Program-made: the position numbers and the translations under genes | Origin: Acidimicrobiaceae bacterium | GTDB lineage: Bacteria > Actinomycetota > Acidimicrobiia > Acidimicrobiales > RAAP-2 | Direction of reading: 5' to 3' | NCBI GenBank assembly: GCA_003167415.1 | Contig: PMTF01000010.1 | Span: forward strand, 20,288-84,287 | DNA: 64,000 bases | Part shown: one piece after another, positions 39,425-44,188 of the stretch | Position numbering within the stretch: position 1 is the first letter of the stretch | Layout: each line of letters starts with the position of its first letter | Notes under the pieces: model-generated | Told to the model about the DNA's origin: nothing | The model's input: the letters and a program-made list of their open reading frames with translations, nothing else | The model's database searches: none

Positions 39425-41320
39425 CTAGCTCTTCCAGATTTGGTCCCAGCGCGCCGCTCCGGCGTCTGGGCTGAGGCAGCGAGTCGTACCATCACCGGCA
39501 GTTCCCGATACCCAGTTCTGCACGTTCGACCTCGCGGCCCACGCATTGACCGTTGTGTCAAGCATGACGTAGGGAATCTCGATCGCGAAGCGACGGTTCA
39601 CCGCCTGCCACGCAGTCTTTTCCGCCGCCGAACCGGGACGCGCGGCGAGGGCTGCCAACAAGGAAGTCTCGACCACGGGGTCGGCCTGGTGGGCGAAGTT
39701 CACCGCACCCGCGATCTGGGTTCCGGCCGGAAGTCCCGCCATGCCCAAACCTCCAACGGCCGGTGATGACGTCGCTGACTGGGAGTTCCACCACACATAG
39801 TTCTCCGACTGGTCGGCGCCACCGAATTGGTTCCAGCCCGCGCAGTCGTACTCGCCGTAAATCACGTTGTTGATGAGCGTGCTCTGGACAGCTGAACGGG
39901 GCGTGATCGTGACGCCGATCTTCGCAAACTCCTGCTCGAAGAAAGCGAAGGCCTTGGTCGCGCTTGCACTGCCGGATACGATGTCCATGACGAAGGCAAC
40001 CTTGGATACGTTGTTCTTCGCCTTGTAGGCGTCGACGAGGGCTTTGGCCTTCGTCGGGTTGTAGGCCGGGTAGCCGGGGTTCTTGTAGAACGGCGAACTC
40101 TTTCGGAAGATGCCATCCGCGATCGCACCCACGCTGTCGTCAATTACCCGGAAGTACGTACTGCGATTGACGGCCATGGCCAAGGCCTGACGAATGCTTT
40201 GGTCGTTCACGACTGGCTTCATGGTCGTGTCCCACTGCCCCGACGACGGGTTGACGGCGCCCATGGTGCCGATCCAGTCAGCCTCTTGGACCAGCAGCGG
40301 CGGCGCCTGACCCTTCAAGATGTACGGCAGTGAACCAGGCACGGTCGGTGCGAATTCGCCGGCCCACGCGAAGTACTGGTTCATCGTTCCCGTCGTGTTC
40401 ATGATCAAGAAGTTGAGCCCTGGGTCGCGCGGCGCGTGGATGTCCGTAACGTAACTGACGCCCTTCATGTGCTTGAAGGCATTAATCTGCGGACCATTCT
40501 GTTGAAGGATCATGTCCACGTTACCGGCCTGCAGTGCCTGGTTACGGGCTTCGGGGTCGACGATCGTCTTGAAGTGAATGTTGCTCAAGTACGGCAACTG
40601 ACGACCGTGCGCGTCCGACTTCCAGTAGTTTCCGTTCTTCGTCAGTTGGGACTCAACGTTCACCTGCCAGGACTTCACCTTGAACGGACCGGTGCCGATG
40701 GGGTTGCCCGTGTACGTGGGCACGAATGAGGTCGGGTGCGCCATGTAGCTGATCTGTTGCTCGCACAAGAAGATCGGGAACGACGAGAACGGAATCACCA
40801 AGTTGTACGCAACGGTGAAACTGTCCACTTTCGTTACCGAACCGATGATTGGCTTAATTGCTAGGCCGACCGTGGGGTCGGCGTTGGCGGCGACCCAGTT
40901 GGCTACAACTATGTCGGCGTCCAATGAATCGCCGTTCGTGAAGGTGACGCCCTGGCGAAGGGGAATCGTCCACACCGAGTAATTCGCGTTCGGGGTGGCT
41001 GAGAGCGCCAGCATCGGCAGCGCGACCTTTCCATTCGCCGACACCACAAAGAGTGGATCGTAGAGCGCGTTGGCGACACAAAAACCTGAGGCGTCCAACT
41101 TGCCTTGTGCGCCGTTAAAAACGTGATAGTTCGGAACATCGGAGAGAGTCCCGACGGTCAGCGTCCCCCCACGCCTCGGCTTTCCATTGTTCACACCAAT
41201 TGCGGCGGCGCTGGCCGAGGTGGCAAGAAGATCGTCAACGATCGATCCGGCCAGTGCGACACCACCAATTGTGGCAGCTGAGTGAGTTAGGAACGATCGG
41301 CGATCGAACGTGGATGACAT
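39425..41320 (-). CDS. Family-5 extracellular solute-binding protein (peptide/nickel type), Tat signal
   Basis: 631 aa. Starts MSSTFDRRSFLTHSAAT, a twin-arginine-type signal, then a mature domain with RRGGTLTVGT, the family-5 opening, and VTFTNGDSLDADIV and IGTGPFKVKSW, hallmarks of DppA/OppA-like proteins. No lipobox, and no permease or ATPase genes lie next to it, so its transporter partner is elsewhere. GGGGGAAAGCGGGA precedes the ATG. Ends at a terminator shared with the MFS gene. Confidence 0.88.
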   Translation of the reverse strand: MSSTFDRRSFLTHSAATIGGVALAGSIVDDLLATSASAAAIGVNNGKPRRGGTLTVGTLSDVPNYHVFNGAQGKLDASGFCVANALYDPLFVVSANGKVALPMLALSATPNANYSVWTIPLRQGVTFTNGDSLDADIVVANWVAANADPTVGLAIKPIIGSVTKVDSFTVAYNLVIPFSSFPIFLCEQQISYMAHPTSFVPTYTGNPIGTGPFKVKSWQVNVESQLTKNGNYWKSDAHGRQLPYLSNIHFKTIVDPEARNQALQAGNVDMILQQNGPQINAFKHMKGVSYVTDIHAPRDPGLNFLIMNTTGTMNQYFAWAGEFAPTVPGSLPYILKGQAPPLLVQEADWIGTMGAVNPSSGQWDTTMKPVVNDQSIRQALAMAVNRSTYFRVIDDSVGAIADGIFRKSSPFYKNPGYPAYNPTKAKALVDAYKAKNNVSKVAFVMDIVSGSASATKAFAFFEQEFAKIGVTITPRSAVQSTLINNVIYGEYDCAGWNQFGGADQSENYVWWNSQSATSSPAVGGLGMAGLPAGTQIAGAVNFAHQADPVVETSLLAALAARPGSAAEKTAWQAVNRRFAIEIPYVMLDTTVNAWAARSNVQNWVSGTAGDGTTRCLSPDAGAARWDQIWKS

Positions 41321-41430
41321 CTTTGTCCCGCTTTCCCCCTGGAGCTCCGGCCTTGTGCTGGCGCTCCTACTGGTCGCAACTTAGCAAGAACCCATCGAGA
41401 AAAAAGGCCACAAATCTCCTCGGGTTATAA

Positions 41431-41474: not shown

Positions 41475-42125
41475 AACTCATGCGCGGCCGTGTGGGTGAC
41501 GGCCAGCGAGGGGTGCAGAGCGTCGTGACATCGATCACGGCGGTAATGGTCGCTGTGATATTCACAACGCGAGTTCCGGCGACTTTGAGTGCCTTCGCCC
41601 ACTGATTCGCCGTGAAATGTCGTTGAATCAGCGAGGAGTGTTCGTTCGGAATGGAAGATCGAAACCGGGGTCATTGCAATCGATGCCGCATTCTTGCCGT
41701 ATATCCCTGGCGAAAGTGCGGTACTGGCGAACAGTGTTCGACAGGTTCGGGCGCAGTACGTGGTTTCATTTGCCTCGCTGCTTTGCGGTGCCCAGCGACG
41801 CGTCGACCGGTCAGTCACGTCGTCCGTCGTTACCGAGATGAATTCGGTGCGATCAATAGTTCTCACGGTCATGGTGAACATCGTGAAACTCGCCCTCTAT
41901 CTCGAGTCGCCTTGCATCGAGACACACCCATCTTCAAAGGTCGGTTTGTGAGAGCCTTGTGAAAGTCCTTCGAGGCACTTTAGATGGCCATAAATGGCGC
42001 TTCTTGCCCGATCGTGGAGTACTCACCCTGTATTTAGCTGATAATGCTCGATCCTTGGCGAGTTCCGCCTGAATCGAGGTAGATAACCATTAAATCGACA
42101 AGATTGAGATCGTCTTTTCTTAAAG

Positions 42126-42407
42126 CAGAGCCCAGACGGAGGGGGGGCCGTCTGGGCTCTGAGAACTGAGGAAGTGGTGCATCAGGGCCCGGATGGTAGG
42201 GAGGGACCACCCGGGCCCTGAGATTGTGTCGACACCTATTACTTAGGTGTTCGTTGCTGTGGCACCTCGCGCATTTGCACCGATTCTGCTCGAGGTCACT
42301 TCACCAGCGAACCCGGAAGAAGGTCCTGCGTGTCGTGGGCCTCTCTTCCGGGATCGCTGGTACATGGGAGTTTCGCTTTCTGTCTCGAGTGGGGGATATC
42401 GAGACAG
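42126..42407. ncRNA. Candidate structured RNA: five tandem stem-loops
   Basis: Stem 1: 42126-42161, 14 perfect bp, loop AGGGGGGG. Stem 2: 42182-42221, 16-nt arms with one mismatch, loop AGGGAGGG. Stem 3: 42232-42250, 7 bp. Stem 4: 42303-42361, 8 + 9 + 6 bp with one mismatch and one bulge. Stem 5: 42380-42407, 9 perfect bp, loop GTGGGGGATA. On the plus strand the loops are G-rich; read from the minus strand they are C-rich, as in small RNAs that pair with ribosome sites. A plausible plus promoter is TTGGCG (about 42055) and TAGATA (about 42079). The strand and whether it is transcribed are not established. Confidence 0.5.
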
Positions 42408-42596
42408 GGACATCTTCCTCAATGAGTGTGTGGATGACATTGGGAGGACGTAAGAAGGAATTAAAACTCGAAGTTCGTCACGAAGTTGTCACGAAGGCCT
42501 CATGAACGGATTGAATTCGGGCATACTGGGCGCGTACGACTAGCACCTCACGGAGTCGTATCAGGGGCACACCAGCTATTAGGGAGGACCACACGA

Positions 42597-44150
42597 GTGG
42601 CGACAGGCATTGATATTCACGACGGATCATCGGGCGACGAAGCCTTCAAGGTTGAACGACGAGGCATTGACTACGTGCCCGAGAACGAGCGCTGGGCGAC
42701 CCCGCGCAACATCGCCGCCCTCTGGGCGGGTACGTCGATCAACGTCGAGTACTTCATCTACGGCGCACTCTTGATGGGCTTCGGCTTCAGCTTCTATACG
42801 GCGCTCGCGGTCATCATCATCGGCAATCTCTCGTATTTCCTCTTGGGACTCGCGTCACTGCAAGGTCCCGAGGCCGGCACGACGGCCTTCATGATCTCTC
42901 GGGCGCCCTTCGGCATTCGAGGTTCGCGGTTGCTCAGTTTCTTCAACTGGCTCACTCAATTGGGATTCGAGACCGAGGGACTGATCCTGATTGTCGGCGC
43001 GGCACTCGTGCTGACCCAGATGGCCGGCCTCCACACCTCGAGTGGTTTGAAGGTCGCCTACATCATTCTCGCGGCGGCGATTCAGGCCGTGATGCCCTAC
43101 CTGGGTCACGCGACGATGGTCAAGGTGCTCCGCGCGCTGATCATTCCCTTTGGCGCGATTTTCGTGTTGTTGGCGATCTATGACTTCAAGCACGGGTCCG
43201 CGAGTTTCAAGGGCTTCGGCGGAGGTTGGGAGCTCTTCACCGCGGGGTTGGCCTTCACCTTCGCCCTGTCCGGGGTCGGCTGGACGGAGTGCGGCAATGA
43301 CTACACCCGCTACGTCGCTCGCGACGCGAGCAAGGGATCCATCGTCGGCTGGATGTTCCTCGGCACGGCGATTCCCGAGATCTTCATGATGGTCCTCGGT
43401 GCGGCCACGTTCACGTTCATCTCCTCGAGTGCGCAGTCGGCTGACTGGAACGGTTCGAATCCCTTCGAGGCGCTGCACGTACAGCACATCATTCCCAGTT
43501 GGGTGGTCGCGCTCTTTCTGATCTTCGCGATCGTGCAGCTGTTCGGCATCAACTCACTCGATCTCTACTCATCCGGCGTCTCGCTCCAGGCGATGGGACT
43601 CAAACTCAAGCGCTACCAGGCCGTCGTTCTCGACAGCTTCCTCGCCTGTGGACTCACGATCTGGGCCATGTTCCAGTCGACCTTCTCGCTCTACATGAGG
43701 GAGTTCGTCGGCGTCATCATCGTGTGGATCGCCCCGTGGCTCGGCATCTATTTGATGGACTGGATCATGCGCAAGTATCGCTACAGCGCCTCGGAACTCC
43801 AGCGCGACGACAAGGACGGGATCTACTACGTCGGCAAAAGCGGCGTGAACTGGAACTCCATCGTCGCCTTCGTCGTCGGCATGGTCTGTGCCACGATCGC
43901 CTTCTCCAAGGCGCCGCCGCCGGTCAACTTCCCGTTCCATTGGATGACGCCGATTTCGAATCACTACGGGGGCGCCTGCGCCGGCAATCTCGTCCACAAC
44001 GTCTGCACCGCCGGGTGGTACGGTGGCGCCGACTTCTCGGTGCCGACGGGCATCATCGTGGCCGCACTCGTGTACTTCGTACTCGAGAAGGTTACCGGGA
44101 ACGTGTCTCGACAGGTCGCCAAGCAACAAGAACTCGAACCCACGTTGTAG
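42597..44150 (+). CDS. NCS1-family nucleobase permease (CodB-like)
   Basis: 517 aa, about 12 membrane helices. WATPRNIAALWAGTSINVEYFIYGALL near the N-terminus and SGVGWTECGNDYTRYVARD in the middle are NCS1 signatures; these carriers import cytosine, purines, allantoin or related rings with cations. GTG at 42597 follows AGGGAGGA. Nearby phosphoribosyltransferase, cytosine deaminase and upp point to cytosine or uracil as substrate (inference). Confidence 0.88.
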   Translation: MATGIDIHDGSSGDEAFKVERRGIDYVPENERWATPRNIAALWAGTSINVEYFIYGALLMGFGFSFYTALAVIIIGNLSYFLLGLASLQGPEAGTTAFMISRAPFGIRGSRLLSFFNWLTQLGFETEGLILIVGAALVLTQMAGLHTSSGLKVAYIILAAAIQAVMPYLGHATMVKVLRALIIPFGAIFVLLAIYDFKHGSASFKGFGGGWELFTAGLAFTFALSGVGWTECGNDYTRYVARDASKGSIVGWMFLGTAIPEIFMMVLGAATFTFISSSAQSADWNGSNPFEALHVQHIIPSWVVALFLIFAIVQLFGINSLDLYSSGVSLQAMGLKLKRYQAVVLDSFLACGLTIWAMFQSTFSLYMREFVGVIIVWIAPWLGIYLMDWIMRKYRYSASELQRDDKDGIYYVGKSGVNWNSIVAFVVGMVCATIAFSKAPPPVNFPFHWMTPISNHYGGACAGNLVHNVCTAGWYGGADFSVPTGIIVAALVYFVLEKVTGNVSRQVAKQQELEPTL

Positions 44151-44158
44151 AGAACGAG

Positions 44159-44188
44159 ACGGCCCCCGAGTCTCGGCTCGGGGGCCGT
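44159..44188. terminator. Hairpin between convergent permease and phosphoribosyltransferase genes
   Basis: Perfect 12-bp stem ACGGCCCCCGAG / CTCGGGGGCCGT with a 6-nt loop, extendable by AGAACG/CGTTCT. No good U-tract; position between two stop codons supports a bidirectional terminator. Confidence 0.65.

What the first reader, a model, noticed from the sequence alone, without database searches (positions are those of the whole stretch)
42126..42407. Five tandem stem-loops with near-identical G-rich 8-nt loops: candidate new structured RNA
Seen directly: five hairpins in under 300 nt, with stems of 14, 15 of 16, 7, about 22 and 9 pairs. The first two stems differ in sequence but display AGGGGGGG and AGGGAGGG in 8-nt loops; the fifth shows GTGGGGGATA. 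Different stems with the same loop suggest selection on loop sequence. If transcribed from the minus strand, the loops become C-rich (CCCCCCCT, CCCTCCCT), as in regulatory small RNAs that bind ribosome-binding sites (established for several Gram-positive sRNAs). If plus, they form a 5' leader of the NCS1 permease. No known RNA family matched by eye.
Basis: partly seen in the sequence, partly recalled or inferred. Interest (0 to 1): 0.8.

Follow-up and report, generated by a model that had tools for sequence, protein, structure and literature searches.

The report
RNA hairpins that outlived their gene
Two tandem hairpins with C-rich loops, still present in an uncultured actinobacterium where the protein gene beside them has decayed, are likely a small RNA that would quiet other genes by pairing with their ribosome-binding sites.

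Summary
The five hairpins are real, but not one structure. H2 (42182-42221) and H1 (42126-42161) are the core; H5 is the leader, and H4 and H3 lie in the deleted remnant, of a minus-strand DUF5666 gene that is intact in relatives. Across the genus a 15-bp hairpin with a CCUCCC loop (minus strand) lies 7-37 nt after that gene's stop codon and upstream of the next gene's promoter-like sequence. Its stem covaries (13 of 15 pairs change on both sides); G-U outnumber A-C pairs 25 to 4, favouring the minus strand. Of 37 tree rows without an intact gene, 20 keep the hairpin, 19 of them with a promoter-like block; the other 17 have neither. Among hairpin-bearing rows the gene state changes at least 6 times. 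In the own genome the model finds only H1 and H2 below E = 1, and no Rfam family matches. Best reading: a 3'UTR-derived or stand-alone small RNA working like 6C/B11 RNA, its loops pairing with G-rich ribosome-binding sites; transcription and pairing are inferred. A terminator that insulates the next gene is the main rival. The plus-strand NCS1-leader reading is not supported.

The parts
42126..42161 (-). H1, second (3') hairpin of the tandem pair; minus-strand loop CCCCCCCU at 42140-42147; tail CTTTAAG
   Evidence: model R1 hit 1.5e-9; loop predicted unpaired, probability 1.0; the counterpart in G010 (L090) is followed by TTTTTT
42182..42221 (-). H2, conserved C-loop hairpin; minus-strand loop CCCUCCCU at 42198-42205
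   Evidence: model R1 hit 7.4e-11; covariation in 35 related hairpins; loop predicted unpaired
42232..42250 (-). H3, 7-pair hairpin overlapping the remnant's stop codon; not part of the conserved element
   Evidence: sequence; position relative to the remnant ORF
42303..42361 (-). H4, hairpin inside the remnant coding region; outer stem not kept in G034
42243..42365 (-). remnant of the DUF5666 gene: N-terminal and C-terminal ends joined by a roughly 650-nt internal deletion; 40 codons here, frameshifted in G034
   Evidence: alignment with L088/L089 and translation; start position; intact homologue P0001 has DUF5666
42380..42407 (-). H5, hairpin in the 5' leader of the DUF5666 unit; loop UAUCCCCCAC on the minus strand
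   Evidence: leaders of relatives
42451..42465 (-). conserved promoter-like block TTTAN5TTCTTA of the minus-strand unit (promoter role inferred; the sigma-70 scan finds no site)
   Evidence: absent together with the hairpin in 17 of 17 hairpin-less rows without intact gene
41376..41390 (-). conserved promoter-like TTCTTGCTAAGTTGC of the downstream SBP gene, which puts the hairpins outside the SBP leader (promoter role inferred)
39425..41320 (-). ABC-transporter solute-binding protein, family 5 (SBP)
   Evidence: PF00496
42597..44150 (+). NCS1 nucleobase permease, divergent neighbour; SD-like TAGGGAGGACC at 42580-42590
   Evidence: PF02133; TIGR00800 below its cut-off; leader alignment

Best explanation
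H2 and H1 are the surviving 3' hairpins of a decayed DUF5666 gene on the minus strand, and they likely form a small RNA whose predicted-unpaired C-rich loops would pair with G-rich ribosome-binding sites, much as 6C/B11 RNA does. Shown: the hairpins, the covarying stems and kept CCUCCC loop of the family, their place 3' of the gene, the gene's internal deletion here, and the survival of hairpin and promoter-like block where the gene is gone. Inferred: that the block drives transcription, that the transcript (about 330 nt here, from near 42440 to near 42110) or a processed 3' piece is the active form, and that the loops block translation by masking Shine-Dalgarno sequences. NCS1 is the best-scoring gene of the window for H2's loop, though not for H1's, and is only a candidate target.
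For: Covariation: 13 of 15 pairs with changes on both sides, score 0.530 against 0.246 +/- 0.015 shuffled and at most 0.127 slid; in 15 hairpins from genomes without an intact gene 11 of 15 pairs, 0.503. Loop: 28 of 35 aligned hairpins hold CCTCCC (rows were chosen partly by a C-rich loop). Strand: G-U 25, A-C or C-A 4. One locus: R1 finds only H2 and H1 below E = 1 in the own genome (H2's reverse strand also scores, 0.0015) and matches 54 of 99 genus genomes; of the 31 strong-hit loci inspected 30 hold the SBP gene, the other is a short contig piece with DUF5666. Survival: of 37 rows without an intact gene 20 keep the hairpin (19 with the block) and 17 have neither (L063 set as hairpin+); at least 6 gene-state changes among 38 hairpin+ rows. 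The loops differ from other strong hairpins of this genome, 16 of 28 of which have 3-4 nt loops and none a CCTCCC-type loop. H2's loop pairs best with the NCS1 start region among 50 greedily picked genes (-19.7 kcal/mol), and GGGAGG is found at 2 of those 50. Mechanism precedent: B11's C-rich terminator loop on G-tracts near ribosome-binding sites (passages of PMC12395582 and PMC10470900).
Against: No transcript was seen, and the sigma-70 promoter scan of the region finds no site. 24 of 30 rows scored hairpin-negative keep GGGAGG before NCS1, so there is no co-loss with this target; the base next to it could pair with the loop base in only 21 of 35 cases. Another gene scores nearly as well as NCS1 for H2 (-19.4), and NCS1 is not among the best for H1's loop (-13.2 against -19.0). 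Nine rows with an intact gene have no C-loop hairpin by my filter, among them L055 and L056 with a 4-nt loop. 6 of 18 rows with both gene and hairpin lack the block by my strict pattern, as does L057. 14 of the 20 gene-less hairpin+ rows are one clade. 45 of 99 genus genomes have no R1 match at E <= 0.01.
Confidence: 0.5

Rival explanations
1. The hairpins are a transcription terminator/insulator of the DUF5666 unit that protects the downstream SBP promoter; the loop sequence is incidental.
For: They lie just 3' of the stop codon and upstream of the SBP promoter-like sequence; H1's counterpart in G010 is followed by TTTTTT; a kept promoter would still need a terminator after gene loss.
Against: Only 4 of 40 hairpins have a T-rich tail and the terminator scan finds none here; loops of mostly 8-10 nt kept as CCUCCC are not needed for termination; 16 of 28 other strong hairpins of this genome have 3-4 nt loops. 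U-less terminators in actinobacteria (recalled) weaken the tail argument.
Confidence: 0.3
2. The C-rich loop is a binding site for an RNA-binding protein or the ribosome rather than for mRNAs; the RNA is a sponge or stability element.
For: A single-stranded C-rich loop on a covarying stem is equally what a protein site looks like.
Against: No candidate protein is known to me (none was searched for); the loop core is an exact complement of GGGAGG-type Shine-Dalgarno sequences.
Confidence: 0.12
3. A DNA element: a dyad operator or cruciform-forming site between divergent genes.
For: It lies between divergently transcribed genes and has long inverted repeats.
Against: The arms change freely with compensation and G-U exceeds A-C 25 to 4, which a DNA dyad would not predict; in many relatives a whole gene separates it from NCS1.
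Confidence: 0.05
4. A plus-strand 5' leader or riboswitch of the NCS1 permease.
For: The hairpins lie on the 5' side of NCS1.
Against: NCS1 has its own conserved -10-like element and leader within about 80 nt; the hairpin can be about 1 kb away with an opposite gene between; wobble pairs favour minus.
Confidence: 0.03

Closest known systems
6C / B11 small RNA of actinobacteria (Rfam RF01066)
   Same: Hairpins with C-rich loops, a GC-rich 3' hairpin, complementarity to G-rich ribosome-binding sites (mechanism as reported in PMC12395582 and PMC10470900, passages seen)
   Different: RF01066 has no match in the own genome and none over its cut-off in 61 genus genomes; the usual loop core is CCUCCC rather than a pure C run; tied to the 3' end of a DUF5666 gene; most rows have one hairpin, not two
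3'UTR-derived small RNAs (types I and II; passages of PMC7821165)
   Same: Sits directly 3' of a coding gene, same strand
   Different: The coding part has been lost repeatedly while the 3' hairpin stayed; no transcript mapped
Intrinsic transcription terminators
   Same: GC-rich hairpin after a stop codon, in G010 followed by U6
   Different: 36 of 40 hairpins lack a T-rich tail; a mostly 8-10 nt conserved loop
sX13 (RF02232), C-rich-loop sRNA of Xanthomonadaceae
   Same: C-rich loops on the minus strand; weak alignment over H2-H1 (18.8 bits)
   Different: Gathering score is 50 bits; E = 0.38, chance level

Membership tests
6C RNA (RF01066) | score over the Rfam gathering threshold | tested here: not met
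   0 matches in the own genome; 0 of 61 genus genomes over the cut-off, 5 of 61 with chance-level matches at E 0.37-0.60; the control search itself rang only below the cut-off (C. glutamicum; C. glutamicum and C. vibrioides)
6C RNA (RF01066) | two hairpins each displaying about six or more C in the loop (recalled; B11 loops of six and nine C) | tested here: inconclusive
   H1 loop CCCCCCCU has seven C; H2 loop CCCUCCCU has six C broken by a U; most relatives show a single hairpin
6C RNA (RF01066) | C-rich loop pairs with G-tracts at ribosome-binding sites in vivo | not testable with these tools
   only predicted duplexes
3'UTR-derived sRNA | located 3' of a coding gene on the same strand | tested here: met
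   18 rows with intact gene and hairpin, 7-37 nt after the stop codon; in the window itself the gene is a remnant
3'UTR-derived sRNA | separate stable RNA species | not testable with these tools
   no RNA-seq available
Intrinsic terminator | GC-rich hairpin followed by a U-tract | tested here: not met
   4 of 40 hairpins have at least 5 T in 8 nt; the window's H1 tail CTTTAAG is not one of them, and one search finds no terminator-like site
any curated Rfam family | gathering-threshold match | tested here: not met
   0 in the window; in 16 related loci the 2 matches at E <= 1 are far below their gathering scores

The most novel reading that the evidence does not exclude
In this Acidimicrobiaceae-related genus the regulatory hairpin, not the protein, is the lasting product of the locus: a DUF5666 mRNA has turned into a stand-alone C-loop regulatory RNA at least six separate times by loss of coding sequence that spared promoter and 3' hairpin.
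Probability: 0.4. Interest if true: 0.7.

Novelty: new variant of a known kind. Interest (0 to 1): 0.52.

Why it matters
It would be a C-loop small RNA, working like 6C, in a genus where the 6C model finds nothing, and a natural series that shows how an mRNA 3' end becomes an independent regulatory RNA, with intact, partly deleted and fully deleted stages in living relatives. That makes a usually untestable question about the origin of bacterial small RNAs testable: the same hairpin can be compared with and without its gene.

Tried and rejected
Rfam at gathering threshold, and at loose E-values on the region and on 16 relatives: nothing credible; the mir/MIR/Chlorobi-1/sX13/ar7 hits are far below threshold. 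A general terminator or repeat family: rejected, because the model finds one locus per genome in nearly all cases that I inspected (weaker hits elsewhere, such as G017 contig 39, were not all followed) and CCTCCC-type loops are absent from the other 28 strong hairpins of 287 kb. Conservation outside the genus: of 298 order genomes 5 match at E <= 0.001, 3 of them the own genus (strict filters, few candidates scored per genome); of the two others one has loop ACCTCCAG and the other a TTTC/GAAA tetraloop, so no convincing relatives. NCS1 as a proven target: not supported by co-loss or by matching changes. The first tree placed four proteins read in a wrong frame or strand (L058, L065, L066, L082) on a long branch and lacked L051; I corrected the translations and rebuilt it. 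L029 and L048 (contig ends) were dropped, and L042's gene state was left open. L063 was scored hairpin+ by hand because searches show its C-loop hairpin although the filter missed it. L068 has a GGGAGG-loop hairpin with one mismatch but was counted as hairpin-negative. 'Without an intact gene' means my filter (DUF5666 match over 60 bits and an ORF of at least 180 codons); L053, L080 and L083 have short signal-like ORFs of 80-111 codons there, and DUF5666-like matches remain elsewhere in 12 of 15 genomes searched. Literature: searches on 6C, DUF5666, UTR-derived sRNAs, Acidimicrobiia RNAs and sRNAs from gene remnants showed nothing on this element in the rows listed (listings only, capped at 10-15 rows).

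Full report
What is there. The five hairpins are present at the stated places. H1 (42126-42161) and H2 (42182-42221) share the 8-nt loop; H5 (42380-42407) has a 10-nt G-rich loop; H3 and H4 have unrelated loops. None of 100 shuffles folds as well on either strand (z -7.3 plus, -9.5 minus), and none of 300 shuffles gave even one hairpin with H2's score. In a 287,329-base sample of the same genome only H1 and H2, of 30 strong hairpins, carry such a loop; of the other 28 (one of them H4), 16 have loops of 3-4 nt.

Surroundings. The hairpins lie between two divergent genes, an SBP (39425-41320, minus, PF00496) and an NCS1 permease (42597-44150, plus, PF02133). NCS1 has a match at E <= 1e-100 in 93 of 99 genus genomes. 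I took its upstream region from 67 of these genomes (loci L021-L087), 6 of them with a second, longer stretch. The nearest named record is an Acidimicrobiaceae MAG, isolate palsa_551 (98% NCS1 identity); its contig length is that of G034's contig. The window's own record may have been left out of that search.

What the hairpins belong to. In many relatives the gap holds a minus-strand gene of about 240-390 codons with a signal-like start; a representative, P0001, matches DUF5666 (PF18914, 33.7 bits against a cut-off of 27). In the 18 tree rows with intact gene and hairpin, the hairpin begins 7-37 nt after the stop codon and precedes a conserved SBP promoter-like sequence, TTCTTGCTAAGTTGC. Aligned with two close relatives, the window and G034 lack about 650 nt of that gene: the start and end of the coding region are joined, 40 codons in the window and frameshifted in G034. 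H5 is therefore 5' leader, H4 and H3 are remnant coding sequence, and H2 and H1 are 3' hairpins. H1 and H2 stems show no change between the window and G034, although only 652 of 705 aligned columns are identical; at that rate no change in 60 bases has p = 0.009.

Structure evidence. Thirty-five distinct hairpins from these gaps were aligned on the minus strand. 97.7% of cells pair, 13 of 15 pairs change on both sides, and the covariation score is 0.530 against 0.246 in shuffles and at most 0.127 when slid. Mismatches by strand are 25 G-U and 4 A-C/C-A on the minus strand (binomial p 1e-4, relatedness not removed, and the finder allowed G-U on the strand searched). Loops contain CCTCCC in 28 of 35 rows; five of the other seven are the second (3') hairpins of a pair (L021, L030, L088, L089, L090) and the remaining two are L050 (CTCTCCCT) and L052 (a run of seven C). 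Rows were selected partly for C-rich loops, so this count is not blind. In 15 hairpins from genomes without an intact gene the pattern is the same (11 of 15 pairs, 0.503).

One locus per genome. Covariance model R1 finds H2 (7e-11) and H1 (1.5e-9) in the own genome, H2's reverse strand (0.0015), and nothing else below E = 1. In the genus 54 of 99 genomes match at E <= 0.01. Of the 31 strong-hit loci that I inspected (two of them the window's own), 30 contain the SBP gene; the other is a short contig piece with DUF5666 only. Weaker hits at other loci exist and were not all followed. In 298 genomes of the order, 3 of the 5 matches are the genus itself and the other two are unconvincing.

The hairpin outlives the gene. 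Of 65 tree rows, 38 have the C-loop hairpin: 18 with an intact gene and 20 without (L063 set by hand). Of the 20, 19 keep a block TTTAN5TTCTTA, the likely promoter of the minus-strand unit, 123-208 nt from NCS1 over all rows that have it and mostly about 130. Of the 17 rows with neither intact gene nor hairpin, none has the block. Against a perfect rule, 6 of the 18 gene-and-hairpin rows and L057 miss the block by my strict pattern, nine rows have an intact gene but no C-loop hairpin by my filter (four of these with the block), and one row's gene state is unknown. On a 65-row NCS1 tree (36 of 62 inner branches starred) the gene state changes at least 6 times among the 38 hairpin+ rows. Visible remnants in the window, L045, L059 and L035 make losses the natural direction. 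One starred clade of 14 genomes has kept the hairpin and block without the gene, so 14 of the 20 rows are one event or few. Two DUF5666-like matches at 33 and 36% identity remain elsewhere in the own genome.

How it likely works. In a predicted fold of a 331-nt minus-strand transcript the H1, H2 and H5 loops are unpaired with probability 0.97-1.0. C-rich loops of the mycobacterial 6C/B11 RNA bind G-tracts near ribosome-binding sites and repress their targets (passages of PMC12395582 and PMC10470900). The CCUCCC loop is complementary to GGGAGG; the NCS1 start region ranks first of 50 greedily picked genes for H2's loop, but not for H1's, and GGGAGG occurs at 2 of 50. Against NCS1 as the target, 24 of 30 rows scored hairpin-negative keep GGGAGG, and another gene scores nearly as well. 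I therefore commit to a trans-acting, SD-masking RNA of unknown target set, at 0.5, with a terminator/insulator as the main rival at 0.3. No promoter site of sigma-70 type and no terminator-like site is found by the simple scan.

Relation to known kinds. It works like 6C but is not filed as 6C: RF01066 has no match in the own genome and none over its cut-off in 61 genus genomes, with the caveat that the control search rang only weakly. No Rfam family matches. As a 3'UTR-derived RNA it meets the position test; processing and transcription are untested.

Noticed in passing
window 42522-42561 (NCS1 leader, plus strand): Conserved -10-like CATACT followed by a small hairpin GTACGACTAGCACCTCACGGAGTCGTA in much of the genus, with paired changes by eye and an anti-SD-like CACCTC/CCCCTC in its loop; no Rfam match. 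A possible separate leader element.
   Followed up: partly
window about 41320-41390 (SBP leader, minus strand): Strongly conserved promoter-like TTCTTGCTAAGTTGC, then a hairpin that in many relatives displays GCACAAGG, then GGGGGAAAGCAGG before the start.
   Followed up: no
window 42477-42503: GTCAC repeats with an 11-bp period (GTCACGAAGTTGTCACGAAGGCCTCAT) beside the TTTA-N5-TTCTTA block; looks like an OmpR-family (GlnR/PhoP type, recalled) regulator site shared by the divergent units.
   Followed up: no
L004 (G017 contig 39), about 1501-1546: A second C-loop hairpin (loop TCCCCAAT) away from NCS1 and SBP in one genome, stem nearly identical to H1's.
   Followed up: partly
window 42380-42407 and leaders of relatives: The 5' leader hairpin H5 also has a C-run or CCTCCC loop in about 10 of the 26 leaders printed (my reading), so both ends of the DUF5666 transcript may display C-rich loops.
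   Followed up: partly
window 44159-44188: Ordinary-looking hairpin (13 pairs, loop CTCG) just after the NCS1 stop codon, between convergent genes: a contrast to H1/H2.
   Followed up: no
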